A DNA stretch of 64,000 bases, taken from assembly GCA_003999685.1 (NCBI GenBank), contig CP021228.1, forward strand, positions 620,001 to 684,000, read 5' to 3'. Positions within the stretch are counted from its first letter, which is position 1. Each line of letters opens with the position of its first letter. Shown piece after piece: positions 21,715 to 52,327 of the stretch. Under the pieces are notes generated by a model. The model saw only the letters and a list, made by a program, of their open reading frames with translations. It did not search any database and was not told where the DNA came from. The translations under genes were made by a program, and so were the position numbers. The DNA comes from Taiwanofungus camphoratus (taxonomy: Eukaryota > Basidiomycota > Agaricomycetes > Polyporales > Taiwanofungaceae).

Positions 21715-23287
21715 ATGGAATCTTCAAGTCCACCCAACGAGGGGCGCACCATAACACCAGTGCACAATCTTGGTGCAGTGAAGCAGATGTTTGATAAACT
21801 TGCTGCAGTGAGGATTTACTCACTGGTTGCTAGCACCACACTATGTTTCTCTGACCCTGATTTAGCTTGCAGAGAAAGAGCCCAGCGAGCTCACCCCGTC
21901 CACATTCGCATTTCAACCTGACACTCAGCAAGCCACTGATGTCATCAAGGCTGCCCTTTCTTCCAGGCATGGCGTAGAATTGGTTATGCATCTGCCCAAA
22001 CCTGATGCGAGGACGTGCCTTGATCTTTTAGATCAGGTAAGTGAGCTACTGAGGCCTACCTTGTCAGGTTCAATGAGTTACAGCACTGCCAATACAGACT
22101 GTCAATGCAATTGAACCTGGTAGTCCTCAGTATACAACCATGTTTCATCTTCTGCAAAAATTATCCCACAAATATGAAACAATTCCAAAGTCATTCATAC
22201 TTTCAACAGATGAGCTTGAAAAGACAAGTGTGGAATATGTAAAATGGGGCGGGTATGCGGATGTGTGGACAGGCTGATGGCATGGTCAGGCTGTGGCTCT
22301 GAAAGTCATCCGGATGTCTGAACCAGATGATCTTCCAGAAATTATCGCTGTGAGCGCTGTTAGTGCTGTTGACATAACATAAGGACGTAGCTATATCTCA
22401 CTAGTCAGGCCTTTACAGAAGCCATCGTTTAGAGTCATCTTCATCATTCAAATATCATCCCATTTTTTGGCATCAATACATCCTTCTTTCCAGAAAGGGT
22501 ATGCTTGGTGTCTCCGTGGATGAAGAATGGCAATATCAGAGACTATCTGCGACATAATCCGCAAGCAGATAAGCTGAGACTGATATTTGCGTGCTCTTCG
22601 ATGATGAATAGAGGCACTGACTCGGAGCATATAGCTTGTTGATATCGCAACAGGGTTGGAGTATTTACATTCTATGAAAGTCATTCATGGCGATTTAAAA
22701 GGGGTGAATCACGCTTAATCGTACTGCACTCCATTCACATATTGACTTGGCTGCCCAAATACCAGGGTAATATCCTCATTGATGACAGCGGTTATGCATG
22801 CCTCACCGACTTTGGGATGGCAGACGTCGTGTATAGCCACAATACACTGAACACTGTCTCGTCAAGTTCCCACAGCAACGGATCACTATGATGGATGGCT
22901 CCCGAGGTATTGGATCCAGAGATGTTCGGGCTCAAGAGAGCACTTTTGACCCAGCCAAGCGATGTGTATTCCTTAGGAATGGTCATGCTCGAGGTCTGCC
23001 GTCTCCGCTTTACCTTATCTCCCTCTGGATCCATTGACGCGGAGCAGATCTTCACAGAACGCGTTCCATTCCCCGAATGCCGTCGGGATGCTGCAATCAT
23101 GCACAGCGTGATGTCAGGAAACCAACCCGAGCGCGCCTCCCTGGCAAATGCCAAGAGTTTCTCTGACCGTGCATGGGATGTCATGGAGGCTTGCTGGGAC
23201 ATGAATTGGGAGAAAGGTCCAACGATTTCTGCTGCTCGCCAACGGCTACTGGATCTAGTCCAGACCTCAGAAACGGACAAGCCCTAG
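21715..23287 (+). pseudogene. TKL-like protein kinase K1 (subfamily A), pseudogene
   Basis: Seven exon equivalents (21715..21807, 21866..22036, 22098..22349, 22409..22582, 22635..22703, 22766..22993, 23048..23287) match K2 in order; five have identical lengths. The N-terminal region (MESSSPPNEG, then LDLLDQ) and kinase motifs (VALKVI, VIHGDLKGGN, DFGMAD) are clear. Three stops lie in frame: TGA at 22275, TAG at 22430 where other copies have Trp, and TGA at 22889 where others have Arg of the VRWMAPE block. The donor after exon 4 is AT instead of GT. Each change fits a G:C to A:T transition. It is a host gene that has died rather than a transposon. A truncated product cannot be excluded. Confidence 0.88.
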
Positions 23288-24751
23288 GTATTTGACATGG
23301 TTGGAGAAATGTAAGATGGAAGTTCATTATGACACCGGAAATTGACGAAACCCTTCCCTATAGCCAGACTGTTTTGTGACGACTCGTAAGCGATTACTGC
23401 AATATAACCTGAATGACATTGTTGAACGGGAGCCGCTCCCAATTTGCGTATGCTATAAGGCGTGCACTTATAGATCTACCAGAATATGGTCTATCTTGCT
23501 GTCTGCTTACTCCAATGTTTGCCAGATAAATAACATGTACAGTATAGTTAGCATCTATCAAGACTGGATGTTCATAAATAATGCAGGTTTAGTTACAACG
23601 CATGTCTGCATCATGAAAAGCTGTTAGCGTTAAATGAATTTGACACATTGTTATGGGAGTACAAATGCTTTAGTGGACGCAATGCATTCATCCTAGTGTT
23701 CTGGTATAATTCATATTCCCCGCCTATAAATATAACATGGATGCTAGCTTCTAACTCAATTGTCAGAGAACGCGTGCATCCATAGGAAGTACATCTGTCA
23801 TTGGTTATCTATCCACTTCCAAGTTCGAAGTGGCTCAGACAATCCTATGGATTGGCTGTAACCCTGATCCACATTTGAATTTTACGACAAGAAACATAAA
23901 CTGCATGGCAACGCCCACAAGCCAGCTTCATCCCGCCCATAATAAGGAAGATAGTCCATAATCTGCATTTGAGGACGCGTTATAGCTTCCAATGCAGTTA
24001 ACATCGATGCCGCAAATGCTCGAACAGACCTCGTCATGGTATATAATTATTGACAACGAGCATGTCATTCTGCCTGGCAAGACTAGGTAATGATCGGGTG
24101 TTGAAACCAGACAACTCTAGAGAAAGCCTCAGTCCTGCGTCCACGATAAAAGAAGGATTGTTTTCTAGTTTTATTCAATTTTGAGTAGCTGGCCTTGTAA
24201 GTTTACTGGTTGATAGAACGCTGTGAGTTCAGAGCCAGGATGGTTTAGATGTCCAGCATACCGGACACATTGGACGTGCAACGGATGTACCGTTCACACT
24301 CATGCCAGAAGCTGGGCTTGGTCCGCCTCATGATTCCCGCTAGGAACACACATTGCGCACCTGAAGGGTCAAGAGTGATTAGCGTTGACGACTGCTGTGA
24401 GCTCATCCCAAAGCGCCAAGTCGATCATGCGAGCGATTGGCCCTGCCGTCTGAACACTTGCAATTGGAATCACCCTCCTCAGAGGTGATAGTTCTGTTGT
24501 CTGTACCGATAAGCATCCTCAGGAATACACAAGTGTACAAAACCTGGACATCGAATGTAGAAAGAACTTCCCAGAGGCAGATCAGCGGTATGAAACATTG
24601 CGAGCATTTAATGATATAAGCACGTAGGACACCTGTAGCCAGATTCAGATCTGTACCATCTGGTCACCTTCAATAAATGTTAACCTCATCATGTGAATGC
24701 TCCTACCCACCACCATACGATTGCATGGACAACCTTGCAGTCACATTTTGT
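23288..24751. other. Intergenic between convergent kinase copies K1 and K2
   Basis: About 1.5 kb separates K1 (+) and K2 (-). No gene, RNA or bounded repeat was recognised. Confidence 0.35.
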
Positions 24752-26277
24752 CTATTGGAATGCCCTTGATAACATTTCGAGGGCGGCAGAGGCAGTTGGA
24801 CGGCTCTCCCAGTCATTCTGCCAGCAGGCATCCATCGCATTCCACACCTCATTAGCAAGTCCAAGGCCGTTCGCTTTGGGTAATGCAGGTCGTTTGCCCG
24901 AGATCACATAATTGATGACCATGGCATCACGCCGGAGATTAAAGAACGGGATATAGCCGGAGAAGATCTGTCCCATGTCAAGACAGGACTAACGCAGGTG
25001 CAATACCTTGACCAACCTCGAACATGACCATTGCAAACGAATATATATCGCTTGGCTGCGTGGGACGCGATGTTGCAAGCTGAAAATGCTCCGGATCCAG
25101 GAGTTCAGGTGCCATCCATCGAACAGATCCCGCATTCCTAGACGAAGTTGAGACGGTGTTGAGTGTATTGTGGTTATACATCACATCTGCGAGGCCAAAA
25201 TCGGCAAGACAAGCATGCTCCTCTTCGCTGATCAGGATGTTTACCTAATCTCGAAGTGTTAAGTCAGCAGGACTACCGCCAACAATGTCAGGATGATACT
25301 AACGCCTTTCAGATCGCCATGTACGACCCTCATAGAGTGCAAGTATTCAAGCCCTGTTGCAACGTCAATAATCTAAGATATCCTGGATCAGTACATATCT
25401 TGAGAGAGATATACAGGGGACACTATGCCTACTAAATTCGGTCGATTGGCATCCGGGTTTCTTTTCAGATAGTCCCTGATGTTACCATGTGTCATCCATG
25501 GTGACACCATACACAGTCTTGACGGGAAGAGTTGTCGATTGATGCCATAGAACGGCATAACATTTGGATGATGAAGCCGAACCCACAGGATGACTTCAGT
25601 GAAGGCCTGGGAGCGATCGTAGAGTCATGCATGTGGCGCCGTCGATCAACTCACATTGTAGATTTCTTGCAATTCCTCTTGATCGGATATTCGAACAACT
25701 TTAAGGGCTACAGTTCGTTCCCGGTATTGACCCATCCACACGTCCGCAAATCCACCAAACTTTTCAGCTTGTGAACTCGTCTTTTCCAGATCCGAAGTTG
25801 GAAGAATGAACGAATTGGGAAATGTTCCATGCTTGCGACATAGTTTCTGCTGTATGTGGAAGACTGTCGTATACTGGGGATCACTAGGAACAATTGTATC
25901 GATAAACTGTTTTCAAACAGTATCAGCAATGAATGCAAGTCGTCTTCCCGACCTCTCTACCTGATCAAGCAGATCTAGACATTGTTGCACGTGGGATTCT
26001 TGCAACAGGGATATCAACTCGACACCATGCCTACAAGATAATGCTGACTTGATGATATCCATAGGGTCTTGTGCGCCAGGTTGGAAATCGAACACAGACG
26101 ATGCGAGTTCTCCGGGGTATTTCTCAGTCAGCTGGGGAACATGATACAGATGATGAGACTTGTTATGTCAACATCTGAGTCTCTCACCACAGCAAGGTCG
26201 CTGAACATGCTCGCTAATGCTTCCTGATTGCCATGTGGGAACTGAGCAGGATGTTCATCTTGACTCGAGGACTCCAT
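24752..26277 (-). CDS. TKL-like protein kinase K2 (subfamily A), intact
   Basis: Seven exons, complement(join(24752..24967, 25017..25244, 25304..25372, 25433..25606, 25655..25906, 25961..26131, 26188..26277)), give 399 residues without a stop. The start MESSSQDEHP matches K1. The N-terminal 87 residues end in CLDLLDQ. The kinase has a weak glycine loop (KFGGFADVWMG), the ATP-binding Lys in VALKVV, the catalytic loop VVHGDLKGVN (Asp and Asn kept, Arg of HRD replaced by Gly), DFGLAD, and VRWMAPEL. These features fit tyrosine-kinase-like Ser/Thr kinases expanded in agaricomycetes. No signal peptide or membrane segment is visible, so it should be cytosolic. It is divergent from no close gene and convergent with K1. 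It is the best candidate for an active member of subfamily A; its target is unknown. Confidence 0.9.
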
Positions 26278-27255: not shown

Positions 27256-28777
27256 TCAATGTGTGATAGTTTGCAACCGACCCAGGATGTGCGAAATATT
27301 CGGACGCGCGCCCGGATCCCCCTGCCAGCAGCGTTCCATCAGCTCCCAAACGCCTTGGGGTAAACTAGCCGGAAGTCGTGTAGGCCGTTTACGCTCGGAT
27401 AAAATTCTGCGTCGGAGCTGGACACGGCCACGGTCTGTCAAATTCCCGTTACTGACCTCCTCGTATTCGGAAAATGGAATCTGATTTGTGAGGACCTGAA
27501 ATACTTTCAATGAAATGAATCTGGGTCGTCGAATTTTTGACAGACCTGGTACATCACCATCGATAGTGAGTATACATCGCTCTCCTTAGTAGGATGTGGT
27601 GGGGGATTTCCGAACAGCTCCGGCGCAATCCATATTTCAGGGGCCTCCGGAACTGTGGGATCCGAAAAGCTGGTCAAGGAGTGGGCACTGCGCAAGACAA
27701 TTGCCAGACCAAAATCCGTGATGCATGCGCGCCCAGAACTATCAATGAGAATGTTTTTCTTATGACGTTTTGTAGTCAGAATGCAATCACGAGATTGCCA
27801 GGATAATATTGGAACTCACACATTTAAGGTCGCCATGGACGACTTTCATAGAGTGAGACACTCGAGACCCGCTACGACGTCCAGGATCTACGAAATCCGG
27901 AAATCAATATGCTTGCTGAGCTGAATACTAAAAGAAGGTATTACGAGATTCCGCCGATCTGCCGTAGGATTACGATTCAAATACGACATTATAGTGCCAT
28001 TGTGCATCCATTGGGATACAATGCAAATAAGGCCAGGAAAGAGTGAATTACTGATACCAATAAACTTGACAATGTTTCGCTGGCGAAGGTGGTGCCAAAC
28101 GACGGCTTCTTTGGTACCGCCGTTGTATCTATGCGGCTTGGTAGTAAATCCCTGCAGAGTAACATGCAGTTGCGCACGACCTATTTTACTAGAGATGCAT
28201 ACCTCTGTAACACCGTCTACATCACGCTTGTCGTATATTCGAAGGACCTTGAGGGCCACGTCCTGGTTCCGATAGCGTCCAAGGTATACCATTGCTTGCC
28301 CACCTCCTAAGGAACGATCATTCGTCTTCACCAACTCGGTCTTGGGTAGAATGAATGATCTTGGAAACGATTTTGCCCTCACGCATAATTTCGTTAACGT
28401 ATGATAGGTTGTCGTATATCGAGGTTCGTTGGATCCAATCCTTGCCAAAGCCTAGCCCATGGTGAGGCAGAGACTGGTCACGATGGCCTGGTTTACATAC
28501 CTGATCAAGCAGATTTATGCATGTCTCTGCCTCTTGGCCTCGTATATGCCTCAACAGCTCTTGACCATGTTCGCTAGACACGAGTCTCATTAGCGCATCT
28601 ATTGGAGCATTGCTTCCTGGTCGAAAGTTTATTGGGGAGCGCGTGAGATCTCTGGGGTATTTCTTGGCCACCTTGAGAAAATGGGAGTTGATGAAATGCA
28701 TGCTCACGCTCAAGCAGACTCGCCCTGTCCAGCTTGTCAAACATAGCTTTGAGGGCATCAGCGTTGTATGCATCCAT
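27256..28777 (-). pseudogene. TKL-like protein kinase K3 (subfamily A), single frameshift
   Basis: Exons are 28724..28777, 28501..28671, 28203..28451, 27945..28151, 27820..27887, 27546..27758 and 27256..27495 on the minus strand. The protein starts MDAYNADALKAMF and reaches CINLLDQ. The kinase has GGGQAMVYLG, VALKVL, WHHLRQRNIVKFIG, DFGLAIV and IWIAPELF. Exon 5 is 68 nt where K2, K6 and four other copies have 69 or 72: one base is missing in the segment encoding EYLHSMKVVHGDLK. That shifts the frame just before the catalytic loop. The first intron begins with GC (GCGAGT) rather than GT. Everything else is open. A sequencing error at the single base is possible, in which case the gene would be intact. 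Confidence 0.85.
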
Positions 28778-29746
28778 AGATGACAAATATGTTCGCAGGA
28801 TATCAATGTACTAGTAGAGGGTACTTTGTCTAGGCGTAGGAATGATTGCCAATGAAGAGACACAGTGCCCATTTAAAGCTGTCGGTGCCCCTTTGAAAGA
28901 GCACAGGATTAGAATGATCTATGCGTTTAGTTGCTGTGGAGACCAGCTACTAACTGAGGTAGCTCAGAATGAGCAGGCGTGCACATCCGTCGCCCTCGGG
29001 TACAAGGGGGTAAGAAATGATCCGTCAATGCAGTAATCCACAAGCCTTGTACTCAACAAAGAGCTACCACGAGTACGCGATGCAGAGTTACTGCTCCGAA
29101 TGTTCCTTTATTTCGGCCCTGCTCTTACGGATGTATGTCGCTGTTCGAGATCTCTTCTCGGGGAACATGTACGTATGTTCCCAAATATGAACGAGAATCG
29201 AAGTTCCGGGTTCACTGTCCTCAAGTGAATAAGATTTCAAGTAACAAAAAGGTTGTAACTTGTCCGAGATTTCGAGACCGCAGGCTGCATTGAGACAATT
29301 GTCACGGTTGCAATTTACAAGGCGCTAAGGATTGGCGCTTACGGCCACGCGCCGGCACCGCTATGGACCCACTTGGATCTACAACTAGAACTGCCCAGCT
29401 GCCTCAATCATCTTCACTGAGATATGAATATTGTTCTGTGTAATTTTCTCTGAGGATCCTATTCACAAGACAAGCTCCCGCACAGTCTCGTCCGACGCTT
29501 GCCTTGCAACCATAAAATGTCATCACCGTTTCTTACTTTCTGTGTAATTCCTCATCTATGGACGAAGATCCCTTCTTTTGGTTTGTGATAAGGCATATTC
29601 AAAATGTAAGCCTGTTCAGGACGAGCACAGGTAGCGAATCAAATGAAAAGGGAATACATAACCTTGATGTACATTATTTGACATAAGCACTATTGTGATT
29701 AGCCGGTGTCATAAAAAGACAAACCCATGTCAATAGGCTGACGACA
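28778..29746. other. Intergenic between kinases K3 and K4
   Basis: No gene was recognised. A perfect 8-bp inverted repeat with a 6-nt spacer (GGGAACAT...ATGTTCCC) lies at 29161-29182; it could be a binding site or chance. Confidence 0.3.
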
Positions 29747-31860
29747 TCATTGCGACGACATCACTGTTTTGGTTTCAACTTCGGTCATTGTGAACACTTC
29801 CGTCGAGTCCGGTGCCTCAGGGCCGTCGATGAATAACTTGATCGCCTCCTCCATTTCTTCTGGCGTGAAAGATTCAGGCTTATAGATAATTTTTTCGTTC
29901 ACCAGACATGTGAGAATATGCGGCACTTTTAAGCGTTCAGAAGCCTGGTGCTGCCACGACGCCTCCATCAAACCCCAAACGGCATCAGACAGTCCAAGAG
30001 CAGTGGCATGTGGGAGCCGTTCAGGTCGTTTGCCTGAGACCACGGCATCGCCAATCCACTCTCCCTGGGGATCCTTGAACGGGTGGTGGCCGGCGAAGAT
30101 CTGCACCGTTTTCAGTAGGACCGATAGGAGGAGTATAGGAACTCGACAAACCTCCCACGTCAGCATCGAAAATGCGTACACGTCGCTCTCCATTGTCAGT
30201 AGGGCAGGTGATCCGAATAGAGACATTTGTGCCGCAAATATCTCTGCAGCAATATATGAAAGAGTTCCTCTTCCGCAAGTCGTTGTGGCATCCGAGTTAA
30301 CTGTGTCCAAGTCATAGGTGACAGTCGTCATACCGAAGTCCGATAGGCATGCACGCCCTGCATCATCGACCAAAACGTTGGCCTGCAATGAATACATGAA
30401 TAAGCACCCAGTACCAAGCCTATAAAGTGTACGTACACCCTTGATGTCCCCGTGTATCACAGACATGCGGTGGAGGTACTCAAGCCCTTTCGCAATATCG
30501 ATAAGCTAGAGCAAGTGATCAAGATCGGTCCAAGTGAAGCAACGAGGAGCGCAATCACCAGCTCAAGTCGATTCACGCGCAAATTAACATGTAAATAGTC
30601 CCTGATACTGCCGTTCTTCATCCAAGGAGATACCATACACAAAGTTTGTGGAAATAGTGAAACGTTGACGCCCAGAAGGGCTGCGATGTTTGGATGCTCG
30701 AGGTACTTCCATATAAGCGCCTCTCTGCAAAAGCTCTGTAAACAAATCGTAACGTTCGCTGCTAATTAAGGAGAGGAGAAGGTACTGACTTTGAGTACTT
30801 TAGACTTACTTGGGATACTTGATCCGTTTCTCGCAATAACCTTGAGCGCCACATCCCGGCGCTTGTAGCGTCCACGGTAAACATCCCCAAAACCACCACC
30901 AGCGTTCGGCATTGGCTCGGTCTTCGTCAGGTGGACGCCATGGATCCTGAACGAGGTCGGTAGCGATGCATCCTGCCCACAAAATCTTCTCAATCTGTGA
31001 AGCACCGTTTTATACAAGCGGTCCTCTGGGTTCATCATGTAGAGAGCCTGCGTCTGAATGAGTTGACCAGCAGCCTTGTAAACAAGTATAGACAAACCTG
31101 GTCGAGAAAATCACTGCATAGCCTCAAATCCTCGAACCCTTTCAGAAACTCGACCCTGTTCTGCGAATCGAATATGGTTCGAAGAAGCTGTATGGGCGAG
31201 TCCTCGATTCCTGGGGGTAATTTGAATGATGCCTGCGATTGTAGCTATATGAATATTAGAAATCATGCCCCGCAAAGTTTTGATGGCCTCTCACCTCAGC
31301 AAGCTCATTGTACTTCGCCACGAATTTTCCGACAATCTTAGCTGGGGATCCCAAATAGCACTATATCAGCCACCTAAGGCCGTAAGCACTCTGAGCAGAC
31401 ACACCATCTAATGACGGAGACATGGTATATTCCAAACAGAGAATAATGCGATCTTGTATAGGTAGAAGTACAGACAATCCTGTAGTAAAGCGCAGTCTTG
31501 TAAGCGCAAGCTGGAGGGAAAACAACGGAAACTGACGGTTATGGCCCCAATCAAACACCTCCATAGATATTTGAGCAGTAGTCATGATGATGTCCATTGA
31601 CCGTCCGCTGTGCGCAACATGTCGATAAAGCAGGATTGAGATGATCGACGAGAGCTCAAGATTGGGCCTGGTAAGTATTATCAGCCAAGCAGACGCTTGA
31701 ACGTCAAATGAGACGTACAGCAGCTCGTTCAGACGCCAAACAGGCGCCTCATCACTTACTGTCGAAGATCGTCTTCCCGTCATGCTGTTCACCCGTACTT
31801 CAATTTGGAGTTCCGGATATGTTCCATTCGTCGTCTTTGGGAGACCTAGCATTTGGACGG
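29747..31860 (-). CDS. C2-like domain plus TKL-like kinase K4 (subfamily B)
   Basis: Nine exons are supported: complement(join(29747..30100, 30152..30382, 30437..30505, 30559..30735, 30790..31047, 31098..31232, 31295..31341, 31405..31667, 31719..31860)). The C2-like part begins PELQIEVRVNSMTGRRSS, then PVWRLNELL and SIISILLYRHVAHSGRS. A helical linker ends in SDFLDQ. The kinase has GGGFGDVYRG, VALKVI, VIHGDIKGANV and SDFGMTTVT, and YIAAEIF replaces the usual APE block. No stop or shift was found in these exons. Further 5' exons probably extend to about 32.2 kb (a Ser-rich piece at about 31980-32160 resembles K7), but the acceptor expected near 31958 is not AG, so the start is unresolved. This is the only subfamily B copy with a clean kinase. 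Confidence 0.82.
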
Positions 31861-34037
31861 CTAGTGAATGCAGTTGGTCTACTAGTGATTACCATAATAT
31901 TATATATGCATGGCTTACAATGTATGAGAAGTGAACGCCGCTTGACGAATTATGAGCCCAGTAATAAAACTGAAAGCACATGACGTACATCGACAACTCT
32001 GAGAACCTTCTCTTACTTGACCCCTCTGTATCCGAGCCGGCGGACGATGATTCCGAGGTCCTGCTCAATGGTGTACGTATGAGTTTAAGCAGCATAAACA
32101 CAGCACCGTGTGCAGTGACGTACGATGATGTTCTTAAAGTGCCATGCTCGTTTGAACCCCCGATTATTGGAGACGCAGACAAGGACCTGATAAACGTTGA
32201 ATGCGAAAGCTCGTGATCAATGAGGGGAATAAAGCTTCAGAAACAGCGCGCGCACAATAGTGCTCTCTTAGGCGAAAGCGCATTAACTTCTGGCATGTTT
32301 GTATTAATGCTTATTAGAGACACATGCATGGTCCTAGTCGATGGAGAAGCGGGAAATCGAGAGAAGAGCGCCGAGCGTATGAAAACTTGTGCTTCAACTG
32401 CTGCTCCAAAGTACCGCAGATAACGATGTGCTTAGCTGCCTGAGGCGAAGGTTGTCCGAGAACAAGATCAATGTGCAGGTTGTCAGCGCAAGCGATGTCC
32501 TCTCCATGTCTCCAGTCACGGCATCACCATCTCAGTAAAAGGCAGTAAGACATGCCGGATCTAGGCCAGCCTCATGCTGAGCGTCGCAGGCAACAATGCT
32601 ACGATGATGCAGATGTCCTGCGGTAGGCGTGAACCTTGTACTAATTGACATCTGATTGTCCAGGGATCCATAAGGACCCACACTTTGTAGTTTGGCGGCC
32701 GCGTGTCTCCTGGGCCAGGACGTAAGCCGAACTGTGCTCGTGTTTCTAGTAAGGCTAGCGACGAGCTGTCGTGCTCGCAATCCCAGATTCATCCCTCAAA
32801 ACAGACAAAAGTAAGAAAGATCCGTGTTATGGAAGGCCTCATGGGAGCCGTCACCAGGAGACCTGCAAGCATCCAGGCGCCAATACAAGCGCTTTGAGTT
32901 GTGTCAGCCTGATGGCTCTACTGTATCTGAACTGGCTCCTATTATGCTTGCCATGCTGCATTGACGAAGAATAGACATCTACGCGACACTGGAGCCATCC
33001 TAGTCTTCACAGCTTCACTAAACGTCTTTGTGTGGTGTGACGGTCGAGCAACACGTATCTCCTACCTTTTGGACCATGCAACCGGCGGACGAATTCTGTG
33101 TCGCAGAACCAGCGTTTCACAGAGCCAAAGCAAGACCAAATCAAGTCACGACTGGCAACGAATGGAGGCCGAGACGAGCTTTTCTGAGCTGAACCATGTA
33201 TAGTCAAGTGCAAGACATGGCTAAGTTGATGTGGTCATCTGAAGTCGGTCTATGAGCCAGCTAGCTGTGGTATGTATGGCCTTCTTCTGTCGAGATTGTC
33301 CAGAGCAATAAACCATCATACTCAAAACAGTTATCACTCCGTGCACATTGCAGGGCCAACGCAGACCGAAAGGGTATTTCCGAAAATGGCACTCTGCGCT
33401 CCACCTTTGGCGGTCACCTCCCGATGTAGGCAAAAGCGGAAGCCGAAATAATAGGACTGAAACTCCAAAGAGAACTCTCTTCCACGCATCTTCCCCGAAC
33501 AATGGCGTATGTTCTCAAAATGTTTAGAATCCGAAAATGCATAACGGTTTTTATGACGCTGAAGTGATATTTCCTTGGCTCGGAGCCATAATCTATGATA
33601 CGACCAAATGCTATCGGGTTCGTCGAAATTCGGTCGACATACTGCACACACGGTTTCCATTTCTTATTTTATTCACGGTTTGCCAAACATGCGATTAGTC
33701 TGTCAAGTTTTCGGCTCGTCTTACCTTGCAGCTCTCCGTCCATGATGCTGGAGAACAATCTGCTTCAATACGGGCGTTGGTGAGTTGTATGACAGGACCA
33801 CAATATCTACAGCTCCTTTTCGGTAACATATGCCAAACCGCCTTTCAAGGTCGGACAGTGCACGATGTCTTCTCAGTGTACCCAGGATGAGTTTGTAATC
33901 CAGCCCTGGCTTGCTTGCAAATCCATGTGCGTCATAGATTACGCTGCCGGTGCCGGTATACGCAAGTCTCTATAAAGCAAGTGGCTCCCGCAAATTTCGC
34001 GCGCATGCAGCAGCTCCTGAACGTCGTCAAAGAAAAA
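31861..34037. other. Mostly empty region between K4 and alcohol dehydrogenase
   Basis: The left end (to about 32.2 kb) probably holds 5' exons of K4 on the minus strand. The rest has no recognised gene; a minus-strand frame at 33334-33660 (108 residues) has no motif. A TATAAAG box at 33971-33977 precedes the alcohol dehydrogenase start. Confidence 0.35.
33971..33977 (+). promoter_or_regulatory. TATA box of the alcohol dehydrogenase gene
   Basis: TATAAAG lies 61 nt before the chosen start. With transcription beginning about 30 nt downstream, the ATG at 34005 would sit at the cap, which favours 34038 as the start codon. Confidence 0.45.
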
Positions 34038-38746: not shown

Positions 38747-39314
38747 GAACAAAGCCTGGAGCAGGAGACTCACGAGGGCTACATTTTAACACGAATGGGC
38801 CCGGCAACGCCATACGACCTTGTCCATATACGGAGTTTCTCCGGCCACTATACATGGTTTTTGTGTTACTCGTATGCTGTTCCCCTGTCGGTGGGTAGCA
38901 AGGGATGTAGAACATCGATGCTTCATGTCTACCATTTCTGAGAGAGGATGCATATGTAAGCTTCCTGCTGGCGGACAATATAGAAGATCTATCGTGGAGG
39001 TAGCAGTGCACCACATGCCCACAATGCTGGTAAGTATTGTTAGTACATGATTCTCGCCTTCCAGAACCTTTCTCACCTTTTGCCCATATCTGAGGGATAG
39101 ACATGCCCGAAATGCGAACCACCGGCAGTATCTCAATCAGCACCCGGTTCCTAAAGCGTGCCGATAGTTCATGGATGAGCGCGCTCGAAGACGTGAGCAA
39201 CCATCATAAATGCAGCGCCATCTTGCTGTTACAGTCGGAATGCCCCTTACCATTGTTTGTCTCAATTGTTTGCAAAGTCCCTACTTCTGCTGCATTGATA
39301 CCCTGCGGACAGCC
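38747..39314. other. Intergenic between kinases K5 and K6
   Basis: This 568-bp gap has no supported feature. It should hold the K6 promoter. Confidence 0.35.
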
Positions 39315-40848
39315 ATGGATGCACTCAGCACTGATGCACTCAACATGATGTTCGACAGACTTGACAAGGTGGGCGATCCTAAGCATAACCCGGGACGTCA
39401 TCCCCGTTGACTCCAGCTTGTTTTAGGCGGCCAAGAAGTACCCTGGGGACCTCACAGGCTCGCCGATTAACTTCCGGTCAAGCGATGCACCAATGGATAA
39501 ATTGATTAAAGTTCTGTCTAATGCTCATGGTCAAGAGCTATTAAGACACATACGAGGTCCAGAAGCAGAAACATGCATAAATCTCCTCGATCAGGTCAGT
39601 GAGTCAGATTTCCTTGGCTAGTCTTACTCATGAAAAGGATGGTTTTGACGAGGGCTCCACCCGACGAGCCTCGGTATACAACCATCTATCACACATTGAC
39701 AAAAATGTGCAGAAGGACTGGATTATTCCCGATATCATTTACTCTGTCGAACAATGAGCTGGAAATAACCAGTAGCCAATATGTGGGGACAAGAATTGCA
39801 AATGTGTACACAGGACAATATCGAGATCAAGAAGTAGCTCTCAAAGTTCTGAGGATACCCGACGCATTTGACGTAGAGCGAGTCACAGAGGTGCGCATCC
39901 CAAAGAATCGCCAGTGGTTTATGCATGATCAGATGTTATACTACAGGCACTTACTACCAAACCGTATAATTCTTATGCTGGTACGAAAGAAGTCGTCATT
40001 TGGCACCACCTTCGTCACCGAAATATTGTCCAACTGATTGGCGTTAGCAAATCGCTCTCTTTCGATGGATTGTGCATTGTATCTTCGTGGATGCGCAATG
40101 GAACTATAATGTCGTACCTGAAACGTAACTCTATAACGATTCGTCAGAAACTCGAGCTTGTAATTGTATCATCTACCATCAGACTACAGGGACTCACTGC
40201 ATCTGGACTATACAGGTCAACGATGTTGCATCGGGCCTCGATTATCTACACTCCATGAAGGTCGTTCATGGCGACTTGAAAGGTGTAAGCTCCACCTTAC
40301 TTTTACTTCTTTAGGGTAGCATCTGACTCGTCACAAGCGCAACATCCTCATTGATGATGTCGGGCGTGCATGCATCGCGGATTTCGGCCTGGCCGTAGTT
40401 CTACGCGGTACCACATCTCTGACTACTACCTCAAATCCCTCAACTCCAGAAGCACCACAAATATGGATAGCACCAGAACTGCTGGAAGATCCTCCACCAC
40501 ACTCTACTAAGGAGAGCGACATATATTCCCTGTCAATGGTAGTGTATGAGGTCTGTCCAAAATTTGTCCGTCCAGTCGAGTTGTTTCGCTGAAAATAACC
40601 AGGTCTTCTCAGAACGTCTGCCATTTGCCGAATATGAGGACTTTCATAACCAGCATTTGACAGACCGAGGTCGTCCACAATTTCGACGCAAAATAAAGTT
40701 AGAGCATCTACGGCCCACACGACAGTTTCTTCCGGCCGGACTACCTGAGGGCATTTGGGAGTTGATGCAGCGCTGTTGGCAAGCGGATCCGCTTGCACGT
40801 CCCATGATTTCAGAAGTCCTAGAGTCTTTAGAGGTTACCTCTCAGTAA
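39315..40848 (+). CDS. TKL-like protein kinase K6 (subfamily A), one altered splice site
   Basis: The model uses exons 39315..39368, 39427..39594, 39669..39890, 39947..40159, 40216..40284, 40338..40550 and 40603..40848, giving 394 residues. It starts MDALSTDALNMMF and passes CINLLDQ. The kinase has YVGTRIANVYTG, VALKVL, VVHGDLKG, DFGLAVVL and IWIAPELL. The acceptor expected before MVLTRAPPDEPRY, by comparison with K3, reads GG instead of AG. The next in-frame AG at 39668 restores the frame but deletes about seven linker residues; it is the acceptor used here. No stop occurs in any exon. It is a direct neighbour of K5 on the same strand and may be functional. Confidence 0.75.
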
Positions 40849-41434: not shown

Positions 41435-41450
41435 TGCCTAGCATAAGGTT
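41435..41450. repeat. Left target-site duplication of the LINE
   Basis: TGCCTAGCATAAGGTT is found here and again at 49446-49461, exactly at the two ends of the LINE. Confidence 0.85.
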
Positions 41451-41764: not shown

Positions 41765-44700
41765 TCAGTTATCGTTCGGATAGACGTGGGGGTTGTCGCG
41801 GATACTGGGTTCCGCTATCCCCTCATCTATCCAGTTATGGTACATTTCAAACGCCTTTGCTTCGGCGTCGTACCACTCGCAGAAATCCCGGTACTTTCCA
41901 CCCAGGGCTGTGGTCATACCAGGATCTAAATGTCGGTCCGCATGGAACCGCTGCCAGACCGCTTGTCTTCCGACAGTGTGGCACATAAGACGGGCACGAG
42001 TGAATGTTCTCGTGTGCGCCGCTTCAGCTTCAAGCAGAGATTCTGCTAAAATCTCTGCCCAATCAAATGTGGAAACCATCAGGTTGAGCCGAAGGAACTC
42101 CATAATGTCATCCGGGGTCCATCCCCTTTGTTCAGGGGGCCCCATCAGAAGCAGATCACGAGGACCCTGTTGGCGCTTCGTCCTGATCCAGAATGGACAG
42201 TCAAAGAGCACATATTCCCTGGTTTCCTCCGCTCCGCACAAACAGAGGTGAGGGCCAGGGATATTGAATCTAGAGCGGTATTCACCGCCTGGAAAATGGT
42301 TGGTGAGCACACGACACACACGTGCCACCTCCTTGTTGGACTTGCCAGCTGCCTTCAAGACCCACGTGCCCTTAGCCGTGGTCTCGTGCAGTGGTAGGGC
42401 GTCCTCGGTTACTTTCCATAACCGTCGACCACGATAGTTGGGATTGTCGACTAATGTCCCCCAACGCTTTTTGACCCTTGCCTTGACACGAGCAAGGGCC
42501 ATCGATTGTGAGATGAATTCCGGTTGGGGATCATCCAATGCTTTCTTCGCGAGTTCGTCAACGAACTCGTTCTGAAAAATGCCTTTGTGGGATGGAACCC
42601 AAAAAAGGACAATACGTCGGCGTTCATCTGCATCGAGGAACGCTCAGATGTGTTGAGAGGCCATGACCGCCACCATCTGTGACGGTCCAACCTTCGGCTT
42701 GAAAATTCGGTCGAGTGCCGATTGGTTATCGGAACAGACTATAAGGGTGGTGATGTGGGCAGGGACGTCACGGACCGCTTCACGCAGCCCGCGCGCCAAT
42801 GCCAGCATCTCTGCATCGAAGCTCTGGACCTTACCGGCCCCAAACTTCCCATGGGCAACGTGATCTTCCCTGTCAATGACGAGCCACGCGCTATCGGATC
42901 TCACTTGTGGCGCATTTGCATACAATCCATCAGTGAATAGCATTCGCCCTTCTGGCTGGGCCAACTGGCGCCGGAATTTCGGCCACCAGGTGAACTCCAA
43001 CCAGTCGGCAAATTCTGGTGAGCTTTTGTTTGGACCTTTTCCGTCCAGGAACACCCGCTCGAAGCGATCAATGTACCGATCCACGACCCGATCACCGGGC
43101 CGTGCCTCCGGGTGGAGGGGTGCAAAGTCTTCTGATGACTGCCGCCCGATGCGATCTATGAACGTCATGGGGGTGATAGCCTGTTTTTTGCCACGGCACG
43201 AGTTAAGCGGCCATGGCGCAGTGATATTGGTGACGTTAGTCGTCCAATAAGGTGGGAGAGCGGCCCTCATTGGGTGCCCTTCATGAACTCGCCGCGCTCG
43301 AAGCGCAGCTTTCTCCATGTATCAGTCGACCTGGATGTGGATGGGGACCAACCCATCCAACATCTCCATCGCCCCGATCGGTGTGGTCTTAAAACAGCCG
43401 GTGATCCACCTAGCTGCTCTCGACTGAGCGGTCTGCAATTCTTTTGCAGCCCATTTGAGGCCCTTCCACTGTGGGTTCCACCACAGTTGAGCGCCGTATA
43501 GCATCAACGGAACGACGTGCGCTATATAGAGCCGCCGTTTGTTGATGGGATGGAATCCGCGTGCCGAATTGCTGAGCATGCAAAGTGCATTGCACGTGCT
43601 GGCCGCCTTGTTGGCGTAGAACCACACATGTGCATGGAAGCTAAGCTTGGGGTCTAAAAAGAACTCAAGATAGCGCATCGTGTCCTTTGCTCGCAAAGTG
43701 ACGTCATGTCCATCAGTTCAGATGGTTAGATCTGGACCAAGGGGTCGGGAATTCGAATACCCCTTCTGGCGCTTCCAGAAGTGCATCAACTCCAACTTGT
43801 GTTACGGGGGGTCTACGCCTGTAGATGACTACCGTGACGGGGGGGTCATTGAGTAGTCAGGCGTAAAGTGTAAACGAGGAGTCAGCCTGGCTGACGACGA
43901 GTACACGTCTAAGTCTTCAACCGCTAGCCCAACGGTCTCGAGAGAGTTGCGGGCTAAGTCACAGCCTAAGTCCTAGTGTAGTCACAAGGATATAGATGGT
44001 TTAAGGCGACCCGTTGAATAGACAAAGGTATAGGGGCCTGAGCCCAGTCATAAAGTACAAATGGTAACAACGGCACCAAAGTACACAGTGTAACTAAGGA
44101 GGACAAGATTGGGGTGCTCCACAGTGAGCCAACCCCTTAAGTACTATGGTGGGTTTAGGGCAAGCCAGCCCTCACCCCCACGGGTACCAGCACCTAAGTG
44201 TCCATAAGTCAGAGGCCCGAGTGGTCCCTTCTGAGGAACAGTCCATAACTAAGCAGGTGACGGCCAGCCCGTCCGGAATGATGGTGATAATTGTAAGTGT
44301 ACACGACCTGCTAGTCCGGTATAGTGAAGAGAAGTGAAAATGTATGTTCACACCATTACCGCCTTGTAACAACTTGTCTCCTTCAACGCCTAAACCTAAA
44401 CGGTTCAGATCACCAACGAGATCATGGAAAACATCCGCCAAAATGGCGTTGTTCTTCAAAACGAGGGCTTGCGGGCTGTCGTCAACAGCCTTCGGCGAAG
44501 CCGCCATGATAAGACCGTCGTCCACATAGAACTGGGTCCCGGTGCAGCCCGGTTGTACCAAATGGACTGGTGCCCACTTGTGTATGACCGGTGCAATATA
44601 AACCCCAGATAGAATCGGGGATAAACTTGAACCCTGACCAACTCCGACGTCAAAGTCAGATGGATCGGTCAGGGTGCCATTGAACAGGAATCGGGTTTTT

Positions 44701-46847
44701 TGCCCGATCAAGTAATTTGCCATGAAATTACAGAGCTTGCTATTGAAGCCCTGCTTTCGCATGATTCCTACCAGTGCATCATGGTTGATAGACGGGTAGA
44801 ACTGTGACACATCGAGCAATAGCACCGATGGGATAAGGTTGCGCGCCCATGCCTCTTTGACATTGTGCACTAGTTGAATGCCAGCGTCAGTGGTACTATG
44901 CTGCATAGCCCCACCAAACTGGCATGGGTGTAAGATTCCCCACTTTTGGGCATCCCACTGCATTCGTTTGGCAATGATCTTTTCAAACAGTTTGCCAAAA
45001 CAATTCAGCAAGCAGATAGGCCTGTAGGCCTTCGCTAGCGTATAGTCCGGTTTGTTTGGTTTGGGTAAAACTACCGTAACAGACCGCTTGAATACGCTCG
45101 GATAGATCTCGAAATCGAGGCAAGCATTATAGTACGCGCGCAACCACTGCCGCACGTGTATACCGAGATCGGTCTCGATGCCCTCCTCAGAGCGCTCGAT
45201 CCGGTCCACCATCCATTTAATCCACATCCAGTTCACGTGATCGGGACCAGGTGCAGACGTATTGCTAGTGGATTTGAGATTCTCGCGAATCTCAAACTCA
45301 CTAATATCTGGTAGAGTCAACTCCTCCCTTTGAGGAATTTCGTCCACAAACGACAGATCCACCAGCTGCGGGTTGGCGGACGTGAACTGAGCTTGGAAAG
45401 CATGACTGAGATCACCTGCACTTTGGACTGGCGCACCGTCAGCTTGCCGCAGCTGAATAGTGGCCTCTTGCCGTCTCGGCTTTGTTCATGTGACAAAGTC
45501 TGAGATCAATTGGGGATTGAATTCATCCATGATCCAATCAAAGTGTGCGCGCTTCGCCCGCTTCGTGGCAAGGCGAAGTGTTGCACATTGTTTATGTCGT
45601 TCGGACCGAAGTTCGGCAGCAACATCATATGCATCTGCAGTGGCCTGAGCACCAGGTCCCAACTGATGACGGAGGTAGCGATACTGCCCAGACGCTGCAC
45701 TAAGGCAGTGTTGGGTGTTCGCAAGCTTAGTGGCCGCACGGGAGCATGCAGCATCCCACCACGACTTAGAGCGTTTGGATGGATGTTTCACTGACGAATA
45801 CTCCATTCATAGTCATTGGAGGTCTCGCTCAAGGCGGTCCCCCATACATTCAATGCCTTGAGCGCTGCTGAAATGTGTAGGGTAATCAGCAAAAAGTTTC
45901 GCCGTTGCCGTTACGAATTGATGGGCCACGTCACCGGTGCGAGGAATACCCCGCACCAGTTCTAGCTCAACTTCAATTGGCATCTCCCACCGCAGGACCA
46001 CATGGTCACTGTTGTGGCGATGTGACATGAGTACATGAAGGTCTTGGCCTTCATAATACACTGGGTCGATCCACACCAAGTCAATGACTCCAGGCGTGAG
46101 AGCGATATTGTGGGAACGCCAAGTGACTGGACCGTCCTGGGCGTTCATCAAGACCAGGTCGAGTTCGGCCTGGGCCAGCTCAATAAGGCGATTAGAATCA
46201 GCGTAGCGTGGAGGCCGCACCCGAGATCCCGCAGCTCGTGCATCCCACAATGGGTGGCGGAGATTGAAATCCCTGCACATACACGCAATGGGTGGAAGCG
46301 CGTGGACACGTGTTTCCAAATATCGGACAGCGTCAAATGTGGTGCTGTCATTGTACACGTTCAGGACATTGAAGTCCCTGGACGGAAGCTTAAGCGCTAC
46401 CAAAAGGCAGTCCTTATGGGAGACGCTGTGAGTGACAACTTGCGGAGAGGCCGAAGCCCACCGCTTGTTGACATAGACTGCAACCTGGGAATCTTTTGAT
46501 GCCCCGAGGCACTTGAACGAAGCATGAGCAGACGTATTTTCATACGCCTCCCCGTCCTGTGACTTACCTGAAGCTACATCCTTGATGCGGCCCCAAAAGA
46601 TCTCCTGGACGCAGACAATGTCGGTGTCCCTATGTCTTTCCAACAATATGCCAGTATTCTCCGCCAAATTCTGGACATTTGCACTAATTATAGTGAGGAT
46701 GGGCCGGTTATTCGGTTCATTCTCAATTTCTTCACCTCCAGCCGATGGGCTGGGTGTGCGGTTAGGGTCCGATGCCTCAAATGGAGACTCAGACCTATCA
46801 TGTGTAATATTTACAACCGAACTTTGCGGTGTACTATACATAGGCAA
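41765..46847 (-). pseudogene. LINE ORF2: endonuclease, reverse transcriptase, RNase H
   Basis: The AP-endonuclease part (about 45813-46847) has ISANVQNL, CVQEIFW, CMCRDFNLRHPLWD and MSHRHNSDHVVL. The reverse transcriptase has SAPGPDHVNWMWIKW, VLPKPNKPDY, RPICLLNCFGKLFE, SQFYPSINHD and FYVDDG. RNase H has LFTDG, SFDAEMLALARG, VCSDNQSALDR and FWVPSHKG. The C-terminal zinc motif CLCGAEETREYVLFDC has Tyr where His is usual. TGA codons interrupt the frame at 45813, 45807, 45486, 43718, 43322 and 42644; all can be explained by one G:C to A:T change from Arg CGA or Trp TGG. A solo LTR at 43800-44371 splits the thumb region of the reverse transcriptase. Confidence 0.9.
43795..44376. mobile_element. 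Solo LTR inserted in the LINE (fossil)
   Basis: The 572-bp LTR (43800..44371) starts TGTGTTACGG and ends CTTGTAACA. It is flanked on both sides by ACTTG, a perfect 5-bp target duplication (43795-43799 and 44372-44376). The LINE reverse transcriptase reading frame continues on either side, so this is a later insertion into the LINE. No internal retrotransposon sequence remains, as expected after recombination between two LTRs. It does not resemble the LTR at 19396-20880. It must be younger than the LINE; the superfamily is unknown. Confidence 0.85.
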
Positions 46848-46863
46848 CTATAAAATTGTCCAC

Positions 46864-49164: not shown

Positions 49165-49445
49165 CTCAAAGGAAGCTCCACAAGCAAGTCGTAGAGCCTC
49201 GACTTGGGCTTGGGTTTGAGATCCCCACGCATCAGGCGCAGGATATGGGGCAGGTCACCCTGAAGGTGTACCGCCGGACACCCTCGAAGACGACATGCCA
49301 ATCGAGGGCGTCCCAGTGACTTGAGAGTCACCAGCAGTATAATGGGAGCCAGTTGGATGGGAAGTGGGAGTGAAAGCAGGGGCCATTTCGACGACTAAGC
49401 TAGGGCGCTTAATGGAGATGATGGTGGTACTGGTTCAAGAAGCGG

Positions 49446-49461
49446 TGCCTAGCATAAGGTT
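49446..49461. repeat. Right target-site duplication of the LINE
   Basis: This is the second copy of TGCCTAGCATAAGGTT, marking the 5' end of the minus-strand LINE. Confidence 0.85.
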
Positions 49462-49769
49462 CACGCTGTGGTAGGAGAGCACAGGACACCATCAATAGTA
49501 TAACTAGTGGAGAGGTTGCGCCCATATGGAGAACTTCTTGTACTTCCTCGTGCAGTTATCGGAGGCATCGAAGACACTCCTCGTGATAGCAACCTACGGG
49601 CCAGTATGGTTTTAGATGTTTATCTCGAAAAGCAGGGGAAATGCCCTCATGTAGCACCTTCTCGCAACCAACTGCTTGCGGTCGTCAGAACACACTGGCA
49701 AGCCTTCACACGGGTGGACCTTTCTCTGTTTTTCATCTCTGGTGATCAACGTGATACACCTCTCCAGAC
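49462..49769. other. Short intergenic region before kinase K7
   Basis: The 308-bp gap contains no supported feature other than the inferred K7 promoter. Confidence 0.35.
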
Positions 49770-52327
49770 ATGGATTCCGACGTGGTCGCAAGCCAGCTTG
49801 AGCACCGGACAGAGCTACTGTACGTTAGCCATCGCCATATGCCAATTGCTCTCATGTGAAGTCTTATGTTTCTATCGGTCAGTATTCCGCCTGGGTCATC
49901 GACAGAGGGGACAAGTGGAGATGAGGTCTTGGAAACGCCGATGTACGTCATCTCCTCCCGGTTTTCACTCCTTTCCCCGTTGCTAAGGCTCCTTGTTCCA
50001 TTCGCCCGAAGTGTACAATCACCCTCCACATTCTCGGACTCAGGTACCGAAGGAACGAACCAAAGCAGAGGCCCTGAACTGTCACTGTATGTTGTGTATT
50101 CTCCGTGCTATACTCGTGTTCACAAACCGTCAGTGATGAGTTCGTCAAGCGACGTTCGCTAATCATACATGGTAAGACGTCTGTATATAAGATTCATTGA
50201 TTCTATGGTCACCTACCATTGCCAGCTGTTCATGTACACGGTATTCACAAATTAATGGATGGTCAATATCCGGGGCTCCAGATTGAAATTCAGATGGACG
50301 GTTGGGCAGGGAGAAGGTCAGAGGTAGTATGCTCTGAAAACCCAATCTGGAAATTGAACAAGGTCTTGTATGTTTGTCACTATGTTCCGCGTTTGCTGGA
50401 CTGACGGCGTTTACAAGGACCGATGTCGACGCCTCGTCGATCGTAACTATCATACTCTACCGTCGCGTCTCGCATAAAGAACGATCGGTGGATCTCATTT
50501 TGGCCACCGCCCAGCAACCTGTCGCACAACTCTCATGGCTTCCTACGTGTGAGTTCTCCCTAATTCTATTTACTTGTGCTCTTGAAATGAGCTCCATTTA
50601 GATTTATCCTACGTCGCGGATAGTGGCCCGTCTACATCGAATCAGATTAGCCTTGTTTTAGGTTGCACCATGCGTCCTTTGTTGAACGGTACATCTCTCG
50701 AGAAGCCTCGTTGTCATTGGACGCTGATGCATCGCGGTTCAAAATACCAGATAACATCGTCAAGGAATTCACATCTGAGTACAACGTCCTAGCTGAGGTG
50801 AGAGGTTACTCGAATGTAGTGAACGTAGGATCCCAATCATTCCATACTTTAGCAGGCAAAGACGGAGTTTGTGTTGCCTCCAGAAATAGAAGGCTCACCG
50901 GTGACGCTGCTACGAACTATATTTTCGTCGCCGGAAAGGGGAAGATTCCTCGGACGTTTCCATAAGCCAAGGCTATGTATTGAGTTTCTCGACCAGGTCA
51001 GTTCACCTTCATCCATTTAGCTGTCAGATTGCTGATTCATAGAATGAAGTTTTTGATTATGATGAATCCTGATGATCGGCTGTATAGAACAGTGTTGCAT
51101 AGCCTGAGGAGATTGTGCGCGAAATATGCTTCTCTGCCAACCTCATTCAGAGTCTCACATAAAAAATTGACGAAACACGAGCGCGTGACCGGCGGTGGAT
51201 TTGGGGATGTGTACAAGGGGCAACACAAGAATCGAGACGTTTGTTTGAAGACAATGGCGAAGAATAGGGCAAGCTCCTTTGATATGTCCCAAGCTCTTAA
51301 GGTCAGTAGTCCCCAAGCTTTCGGCACCTGATGAACAGCTAAGTCTCTCCAGGTGGTTTGTAGAGAAGCAATTGCCTGGAAATATCTTGATCATCGGAAC
51401 ATCATAATGCTCTTGGGTGTTAACGTCTCACTGATTTCTGACAATTTGTGTCTAATATCTCCATGGATGGAACATGGAGACATCAGAGCCTATCTGAAAA
51501 ACAATCCAGCTACAAATCGACTTCAGCTGGTAAAGAGATTCGCTGCATATTGATCTGCGTCCATGCTGAATATGATCCCATCAGCTTGTGGATATCGCGT
51601 GTGGCCTCGAGTACTTACACTCCCTTGATCTGGTACATGCCGACCTCAAAGGGGTCAGTATATACATGCGAAGATCAGAGTCTCCCAGCTGACTGTCGTG
51701 ACGAGTCGCAGGCGAATGTTCTTATCGACGATGAAAAGCGCGCCTTACTGACAGATTTCGGCCTCGCGACTGTGGCCTATGAGTTGAACACTGTCAATTC
51801 GACGTCGAGTATTTCGAAAGGGGGAGGAACGGTGCGATAGATGGCGCCGGAGCTATTTGATCCAGGAAGGTTCGGGATCAAAGGACCGCCACAACCAAGG
51901 AAAGCGAGTGATATGTATTCATTATCGATGCTAATGTGGGAGGTCCGTCCCACTACCATGATGGTTTCTCAAGCTAAGTTGACTGAAAGTAGCATAGATT
52001 TTCACAGGCCGATATCCATTACACGAATACTTCACGGATTCGCTGATCAGGGATGCTGTTCTCAGCGAGAAACGACCGCAGCGTCCCCCACACACAACTG
52101 CATTCGGACTGTCTGATGTTGTTTGGGGAATAATGGCAGCTTGTTGGACACACGATCCTTTTCAGCGCCCAAAAGTCAACGACATCTCCTCACGCCTGTA
52201 TGACGCCTATGTGGATTATGCACCCGAGTCGGTCTCGGAGGAAGAAATGAAGAAAGCCATTCATTTGTTTGGCAAGGATGGCACTGAAGCTGATATAAGC
52301 ATGGTGTCGACGACAATCACAATATGA
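49770..52327 (+). pseudogene. C2-like domain plus TKL-like kinase K7 (subfamily B), one nonsense codon
   Basis: Fourteen exons (49770..49819, 49883..49942, 50012..50086, 50134..50171, 50226..50367, 50418..50548, 50602..50688, 50751..50797, 50856..50996, 51050..51301, 51353..51529, 51585..51653, 51712..51942, 51998..52327) give 609 codons before the stop. The start MDSDVVASQLEHR leads to a Ser/Thr-rich segment, then the C2-like GLQIEIQMDGWAGRRSE and SIVTIILYRRVSHKERS. The linker ends in CIEFLDQ. The kinase has GGGFGDVYKG, VCLKTM, LVHADLKG, TDFGLAT and a complete C-lobe. A TAG at 51838-51840 replaces the Trp of the VRWMAPE block, so translation would stop in the activation segment. This copy gives the clearest full-length picture of the architecture. 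HRD is HAD. Confidence 0.87.

What the first reader, a model, noticed from the sequence alone, without database searches (positions are those of the whole stretch)
21715..52327. Seven TKL-like kinase paralogs packed in 31 kb
K1 to K7 share a kinase domain, an N-terminal Leu-Asp-Gln linker and nearly identical exon lengths (for example 252, 174-177, 69 and 228-231 nt), yet lie on both strands and show every stage from intact to dead. Birth-and-death of this kind is seen in defence, recognition or mating-type-like gene families. A role in self/non-self or stress signalling is an inference only.
Basis: partly seen in the sequence, partly recalled or inferred. Interest (0 to 1): 0.75.

Follow-up and report, generated by a model that had tools for sequence, protein, structure and literature searches.

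The report
Old mushroom kinase gene cluster, decaying
A fungal chromosome carries seven related protein-kinase genes side by side, apparently old duplicates from a kinase group known to be expanded in mushrooms; at least four of the seven are broken, and no recent births or link to self/non-self recognition were found.

Summary
Seven related TKL kinase genes (K1-K7) lie at 21715-52327 on both strands, sharing a Leu-Asp-Gln linker and exon plan. Only K2 is plainly sound. K6 is open only with a shifted splice donor, K4 lacks a clear 5' end, and K1, K3, K5 and K7 carry stops or frameshifts. The "actively expanding defence family" reading is only partly supported. Family members on contigs C10 and C3 share the exon sizes and mostly the linker (at least 12 genes in all), so these mark an old gene structure, not recent copying. 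The closest cluster pairs are 53-61% identical, with near-saturated synonymous sites and dN/dS about 0.2: old duplicates, long kept, now being lost. All 12 family members have a non-RD loop (HGD/HAD), against 5 of 38 other kinases read in this genome. The family resembles published agaricomycete FslK/TKL expansions; tree placement could not be tested. Function (defence, development, stress) stays open; strain comparison and expression would decide. Moderately interesting.

The parts
21715..23287 (+). K1, short-form TKL kinase, pseudogene: in-frame stops at 22275, 22430, 22889 and a shift or lost splice donor near 22589
   Evidence: spliced model; paralogue of K2 (55% identity)
24752..26277 (-). 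K2, short-form TKL kinase, open from ATG to stop, 7 exons
   Evidence: PF07714 E=1.3e-44
27256..28777 (-). K3, short-form TKL kinase, frameshift at about 27860 and possibly one at the 28669 splice junction
   Evidence: sister of K6 (61% identity, support 100/100)
29747..31861 (-). K4, long-form kinase: N-terminal domain of unknown family, linker, TKL kinase; open over its modelled exons, start and 5' exons not convincing
   Evidence: PF07714 E=8.6e-40
36653..38746 (+). K5, long-form kinase, frameshift at about 38511; 5' exons uncertain
39315..40848 (+). K6, short-form kinase, open from ATG to stop only with a shifted donor (39603) in the linker intron; glycine-rich loop degenerate
49770..52327 (+). 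K7, long-form kinase with Ser/Thr-rich N-terminal exons; one in-frame stop at 51838
49883..50086 (+). two similar Ser/Thr-rich N-terminal exons of K7 (49883-49942 and 50012-50086)
   Evidence: likeness judged by eye
27271..31861 (-). left half of a mirror-image block (K4 then K3)
   Evidence: blastn of the inverted left half against the right half; inverted repeats I1-I5
36653..40833 (+). right half of the mirror-image block (K5 then K6)
34223..34810 (+). alcohol-dehydrogenase-like ORF near the centre of the mirror image, not part of the family
   Evidence: PF08240 E=2.9e-14
41765..46847 (-). LINE-type retroelement remnant split into several ORFs, between K6 and K7
   Evidence: Exo_endo_phos_2 and RVT_1 above cut-off, RNase H and RVT_3 below cut-off

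Best explanation
This is an old local cluster of one fungal TKL kinase family (linker + kinase), of the kind reported as expanded in mushroom-forming fungi (FslK/TKL). It holds a long form (Ser/Thr-rich exons modelled in K7, a domain of unknown family that looks C2-like to my eye, linker, kinase: K4, K5, K7) and a short form (linker, kinase: K1, K2, K3, K6). It most likely grew by ancient tandem and inverted duplication, including inversion of a long-short pair (K4-K3 mirrored by K5-K6), was kept under purifying selection, and is now losing members by point lesions. Shown: anatomy, lesions, kinship, retention of catalytic residues, non-RD loop. Inferred: the working copies (K2, perhaps K6 and K4) are soluble Ser/Thr kinases whose N-terminal part receives the signal or recruits the kinase, and which, being non-RD, switch on without the usual activation-loop phosphorylation. 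The signal is unknown; development and response to other organisms are both open.
For: Gene models and lesions. Kinase match of K2 and K4; best solved relatives of K2 are RIPK1, then TNNI3K, both TKL, with tyrosine kinases close behind (best 60 of 2360 shown). Lys, alpha-C Glu, HxD Asp, Asn and DFG Asp kept in 7 of 7 copies. The exon series recurs in four of five dispersed members, on C10 and C3. In one tree the 12 genes form a clade (99.6/96); K1+K2 95.7/96; K3+K6 100/100. dS 1.26-2.54 and dN/dS 0.17-0.29 in the five cluster pairs computed. Departures at conserved columns: broken K1 0.125, K3 0.159, K5 0.202, K7 0.181; others K2 0.111, K4 0.23, K6 0.184. Mirror-image collinearity. Non-RD 12 of 12, against 5 of 38 other kinases read. 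The highest hydropathy peak lies inside the kinase domain in 7 of 7.
Against: With two outgroups left out, the ML tree puts the C3 tandem pair beside a C10 gene, so the 12-gene clade is not stable. K4/K5/K7 branching is unresolved, and K4-K5 is less alike (44%) than K3-K6 (61%), so the block duplication is not proven; spacers of the two blocks show no leftover similarity. A tree with all seven as one clade is not rejected (AU 0.125-0.129). dS is near saturation, so dN/dS is rough. K6 needs a shifted donor and has a degenerate glycine loop; K4's start is uncertain and its APE reads AAE; so only K2 looks fully sound. No expression or strain data.
Confidence: 0.64

Rival explanations
1. An active birth-and-death family for self/non-self recognition or defence: copies are gained and lost as recognition alleles change, and the kinase starts a response to a foreign hypha or microbe.
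For: Clustered paralogues with mixed fates; two subtypes with different N-termini; non-RD loop in 12 of 12, as reported for IRAK1 and Pelle (PMC3792031 passages) and most PTI kinases (PMC5968223 passages); C2 and kinase domains are listed as effector domains of fungal NLRs (PMC4986451 passages).
Against: No recent copies in the cluster. dN/dS about 0.2 averaged over genes; site-wise diversifying selection was not tested. No NLR or HET domain matched in K2, K4 or 37 of 96 window ORFs. Non-RD is one ancestral trait, not 12 independent events.
Confidence: 0.15
2. Mushroom-development signalling kinases: the family acts in fruiting-body or hyphal differentiation and the cluster is a store of partly redundant copies. 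(About function; compatible with the best explanation.)
For: Zhao et al. 2014 propose this for FslK kinases of Agaricomycetes (PMC3937382, parts 1-2 of 3 read). A TKL-ccin kinase is listed in a circuitry conserved in fruiting of three mushrooms (PMC4082614 passage).
Against: No expression data here; the listed TKL-ccin gene could not be compared with K1-K7. Another TKL-ccin kinase is reported as down-regulated in LiCl-treated mycelium (PMC10890143 passage), so the label does not point to one role.
Confidence: 0.35
3. A relic: the whole cluster is in terminal decay and no member is functional.
For: At least four of seven broken; K4 start unclear, K6 open only with a shifted donor and with a degenerate glycine loop; LINE remnant in the cluster. 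Odds raised from 0.20 to 0.25.
Against: K2 keeps the checked catalytic residues and a full open frame; dN/dS about 0.2.
Confidence: 0.25

Closest known systems
FslK, fungi-specific lineage of kinases close to tyrosine kinases (Zhao et al. 2014, PMC3937382)
   Same: Fungal TKL/TK-like kinase domain; lacks the TK residues AARN in 7 of 7; lacks the first Pro of the subdomain VIII motif in 5 of 7; Pro at the fourth place of GxRP in 5 of the 6 cluster copies aligned there (K2, K4 GKRP, K5 GARP, K7 EKRP, K6 HLRP; K1 GNQP also ends in Pro but lacks the Arg). Reported expanded in Agaricomycetes, with recent expansions in Laccaria and Fomitiporia.
   Different: K3 and K6 have a Pro at that subdomain VIII place (PEIW, PQIW). 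Reference FslK sequences were not at hand, so tree placement is untested. Only 16 of 241 FslK members have an extra domain; K4, K5 and K7 carry one that Pfam does not recognise.
TKL kinases of Laccaria bicolor (Kosti et al. 2010, PMC2838846, passages) and 'TKL-ccin' of Coprinopsis (PMC4082614, passages)
   Same: TKL expansion or TKL label in mushroom fungi. TKL-like genes are also reported expanded in the glomeromycete Rhizophagus (PMC4219462, passages), so the trait is not confined to mushrooms.
   Different: No sequences compared; the passages seen do not describe a mirror-image cluster.
IRAK1/Pelle, RIPK1 and plant immune receptor kinases
   Same: TKL-type kinases; non-RD loop reported for IRAK1/Pelle and most PTI kinases; RIPK1 is the best solved sequence match to K2.
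   Different: No death domain matched in K2 or K4 by Pfam; likeness is at kinase-group level only.
Fungal NLRs with C2 or kinase effector domains (Dyrka et al. 2014, PMC4986451, passages)
   Same: C2 and PKinase are listed as N-terminal domains, C2 in a few basidiomycetes.
   Different: No NACHT/NB-ARC matched in K2 or K4; the C2 assignment here is unproven.

Membership tests
TKL kinase group | PF07714/PF00069 domain with best relatives among TKL kinases | tested here: met
   PF07714 scores above PF00069 for K2 and K4; RIPK1 and TNNI3K are the best PDB matches of K2, followed by tyrosine kinases and B-raf
TKL kinase group | catalytic Lys, Glu, Asp, Asn and DFG Asp present | tested here: met
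   7 of 7 cluster copies, broken ones read across their lesions
FslK (fungi-specific lineage) | absence of the TK motif DL(R/A)A(A/R)N | tested here: met
   HGDxKxxN or HADxKGAN in 7 of 7, against the motif given in PMC3937382
FslK (fungi-specific lineage) | absence of the first Pro of XP(I/V)(K/R)W(T/M)APE | tested here: inconclusive
   absent in K1, K2, K4, K5, K7; a Pro stands there in K3 (PEIW) and K6 (PQIW), without the (I/V)(K/R) that follows
FslK (fungi-specific lineage) | Pro instead of Leu/Met at the fourth position of GxR(L/M) | tested here: met
   six of six aligned cluster copies end in Pro, five with RP; K3 not aligned there
FslK (fungi-specific lineage) | falls in the FslK clade of a tree with TKs and TKLs | not testable with these tools
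   no FslK reference sequences available
C2 domain (PF00168) in K4, K5, K7 | profile match to C2 | tested here: inconclusive
   no C2 hit in Pfam at E<=10, only FeThRed_A at 0.12, below cut-off, for K4; no C2 in PDB; hhalign to five C2 domains of this genome: probability 5.5%, nominal E 0.0071
fungal NLR | NACHT or NB-ARC domain in the gene itself | tested here: not met
   K2 and K4 scanned with Pfam at E<=1: kinase families only, the others below cut-off; K1, K3, K5, K6, K7 not scanned whole
fungal recognition locus | NLR or HET gene beside the cluster | tested here: inconclusive
   none in 37 of the 96 window ORFs of 120 aa or more
recently expanding gene family | near-identical young copies | tested here: not met
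   cluster pairs at most 61% identical; dS at least 1.26 in the five pairs computed

The most novel reading that the evidence does not exclude
The long and short kinases work as a matched pair: a long kinase with a membrane-binding or sensing N-terminal domain next to a short partner kinase, inherited and duplicated as one module (K4-K3, K5-K6), forming a fungal signalling or recognition device built on non-RD kinases, comparable in logic to IRAK4/IRAK1 (Tube/Pelle) kinase pairs or paired plant NLRs.
Probability: 0.08. Interest if true: 0.7.

Novelty: new member of a known kind. Interest (0 to 1): 0.33.

Why it matters
TKL kinases are reported as expanded in mushroom fungi, and Zhao et al. state that the functions of the FslK kinases remain to be determined. 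This locus gives a compact test set: two architectures, intact and broken copies side by side, a non-RD loop throughout, and a mirror-image arrangement. Presence/absence between strains would tell quickly whether such clusters turn over as recognition genes do or are merely old and eroding.

Tried and rejected
Rejected: exon-length identity as a sign of recent duplication (same lengths in family genes on other contigs). Rejected: recent expansion. Not settled: single origin of the seven (AU 0.125-0.129), K1/K2/K3/K6 as one clade (AU 0.078) and the order of K4/K5/K7 (AU 0.486-0.642); these tests compared six fixed trees only. Not settled: C2 identity of the long-form domain. Led nowhere: Pfam and PDB for the linker (best hits Bac_thur_toxin 0.056 below cut-off and a designed protein 0.016, both taken as chance); literature searches for this kind of cluster. 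Structure prediction was not run: its stated rule admits proteins that the DNA gives letter for letter, and spliced proteins do not clearly meet it. Strain or species comparison was not possible: no relatives are held for this genome (stated).
Full report
SETTING. The window is G000:C9:620001-684000 of a 33.2-Mb, 15-contig genome. No relatives are held for this genome, so every genomic comparison below is within it.

OBSERVATION. Comparing all window ORFs with each other finds one dominant paralogue family, in seven places between 21.7 and 52.3 kb. K2 (24752-26277, minus) is open from ATG to stop. K6 (39315-40848, plus) is open only if its linker intron uses the donor at 39603: with the donor at 39595, the place used after LDQ in its relatives, the frame breaks. 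K4 (minus, from 31861) is open over its modelled exons, but its first exons and start could not be modelled with confidence. K1 has three in-frame stops and a shift or lost donor near 22589, K3 one clear and one possible frameshift, K5 one frameshift, K7 one stop.

TWO FORMS. K4, K5 and K7 carry about 120 residues N-terminal to the linker that the models of the other four lack; K7 also has a Ser/Thr-rich leader with two similar exons. A genome search with the K7 domain finds 8 matches at E<=10, all in K4, K5 or K7; with short exons this search is weak, so other carriers may be missed. To my eye the domain reads as a C2-like beta sandwich, but Pfam at E<=10, a PDB profile search and a profile comparison with five C2 domains of the same genome (probability 5.5%, nominal E 0.0071) do not establish it. 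The Leu-Asp-Gln linker has no convincing match either.

KINASE. PF07714 matches at 8.6e-40 (K4) and 1.3e-44 (K2); RIPK1 and TNNI3K are the best solved relatives of K2, tyrosine kinases follow closely. The catalytic Lys, alpha-C Glu, HxD Asp, Asn and DFG Asp are kept in 7 of 7 copies; K6 has a degenerate glycine loop and K4 an AAE in place of APE. All 12 family members have Gly or Ala in place of the Arg of HRD. As a yardstick I fetched 40 other kinase stretches, hand-picked in rank order from the Pkinase hits that seem to cover the loop (at least two such hits, C1:1057721 and C4:2025588, were passed over); a loop was readable in 38, and 5 of these are non-RD (one of the five, L080, may be a splice artefact). 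Non-RD kinases are reported for IRAK1/Pelle and for most plant PTI kinases (PMC3792031 and PMC5968223, passages). The 12 genes share ancestry, so this is one evolutionary event; the Fisher value must not be read as 12 independent cases.

FAMILY. Searches with K4, K2, K6 and a C10 gene and models of 13 loci plus a second gene at one of them give five further members: three on C10 (1178309-1179654, 1228116-1229398, 1237885-1236564), one on C3 (3270656-3269320) and one on C6 (1218543-1217558). Four of the five, on C10 and C3, show the exon series 245-252/171/69/213-228/201 (C6: 168/177/69/219/138), so equal exon sizes are a family trait. LDQ is kept in two of the five (C10 at 1228 kb, C3), reads FDQ in a third (C10 at 1178 kb), is disturbed in the C10 gene at 1237 kb (245-nt exon; broken or mis-modelled) and was not recovered on C6, which also has DIG and no alpha-C Glu. 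More members may be missed: the search tool scores only the best candidates.

AGE. In the first tree the 12 genes form a clade (99.6/96); K3+K6 (100/100) and K1+K2 (95.7/96) are firm; K4/K5/K7 is unresolved; the dispersed genes fall among the short cluster genes with weak support. In a second ML tree without two outgroups the C3 tandem pair moved next to a C10 gene, so the outer border of the family is not stable. A tree with all seven as one clade is not rejected (AU 0.125-0.129). Best identities are 61% (K3/K6), 55% (K1/K2), 53% (K4/K7). dS is 1.26-2.54 and dN/dS 0.17-0.29 in the five cluster pairs computed, with the usual warning about saturation. Broken copies depart from conserved columns about as often as the others, so the breaks look young compared with the duplications. 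By contrast a tandem pair on C3 is 84% identical and FunK1-like copies on C9 and C5 reach 99.9%: recent kinase births do exist in this genome, but were not found in this cluster.

ARRANGEMENT. K4-K3 on the minus strand is mirrored, in order, by K5-K6 on the plus strand around a centre near 34 kb that holds an alcohol-dehydrogenase-like ORF. The simplest reading is inverted duplication of a long-short pair. The K3/K6 sister relation fits; K4/K5 is neither supported nor excluded (AU 0.486), and the spacers between the two genes of each block keep no similarity. A LINE remnant lies between K6 and K7.

FUNCTION. The highest 19-residue hydropathy peak lies inside the kinase domain in 7 of 7 copies (1.20-1.96), so nothing points to a membrane span. 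The most likely mechanism is a soluble Ser/Thr kinase whose N-terminal part receives the signal and which, as a non-RD kinase, does not depend on the usual activation-loop control. Nothing here decides between them. No NLR or HET domain was matched in K2, K4 or the 37 of 96 window ORFs scanned.

NOVELTY. Expanded TKL kinases in agaricomycetes, with some truncated copies ascribed to decay after duplication, are in print (PMC3937382, parts 1-2 of 3 read; PMC2838846, passages). FslK membership is plausible but not shown: K3 and K6 keep a Pro that the paper says FslK members lack, and no tree with FslK references was possible. I found no description of a mirror-image long-short TKL cluster in searches, which cover open-licence papers only. 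I file it as a new member of a known kind (expanded fungal TKL kinases).

Noticed in passing
G000:C9 near 1029300, 1069700, 1131900, 1224300, 1393400; C5 near 1751300, 1754800 (L034-L040): Seven stretches 80-99.9% identical in DNA with a FunK1-like catalytic loop (HRDISAGNIL, seen in the four of them whose translation was printed; name from recall): genuinely recent kinase copies, unlike the window cluster.
   Followed up: partly
59500-64000, and C9:686000-689000 (L046): GC-rich islands, up to 77% in 500-base steps, in a window otherwise at 45-57% GC in 2-kb steps; a GH16 domain match lies at 59642-60637 minus.
   Followed up: no
L023, C3:1036085-1037163 and 1039083-1040229: A tandem pair of related kinases (partial models), 84% identical, whose HxD Asp is Thr or Asn (HGTVR/HGNVR): candidate pseudokinases, and a younger duplication than those measured in the window.
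   Followed up: partly
41765-49254 minus: LINE remnant (endonuclease, reverse transcriptase, weak RNase H matches) next to a 528-aa ORF (47668-49254) without a family match at the cut-off.
   Followed up: no
L024, C6:1218543-1217558: A family member with DIG instead of DFG and no alpha-C Glu: possible pseudokinase outside the cluster.
   Followed up: no
10905-11444 plus: ATG13 (autophagy) exon, E=9.4e-34, about 10 kb left of K1; POT-family transporter exons at 15170-16323 minus.
   Followed up: no
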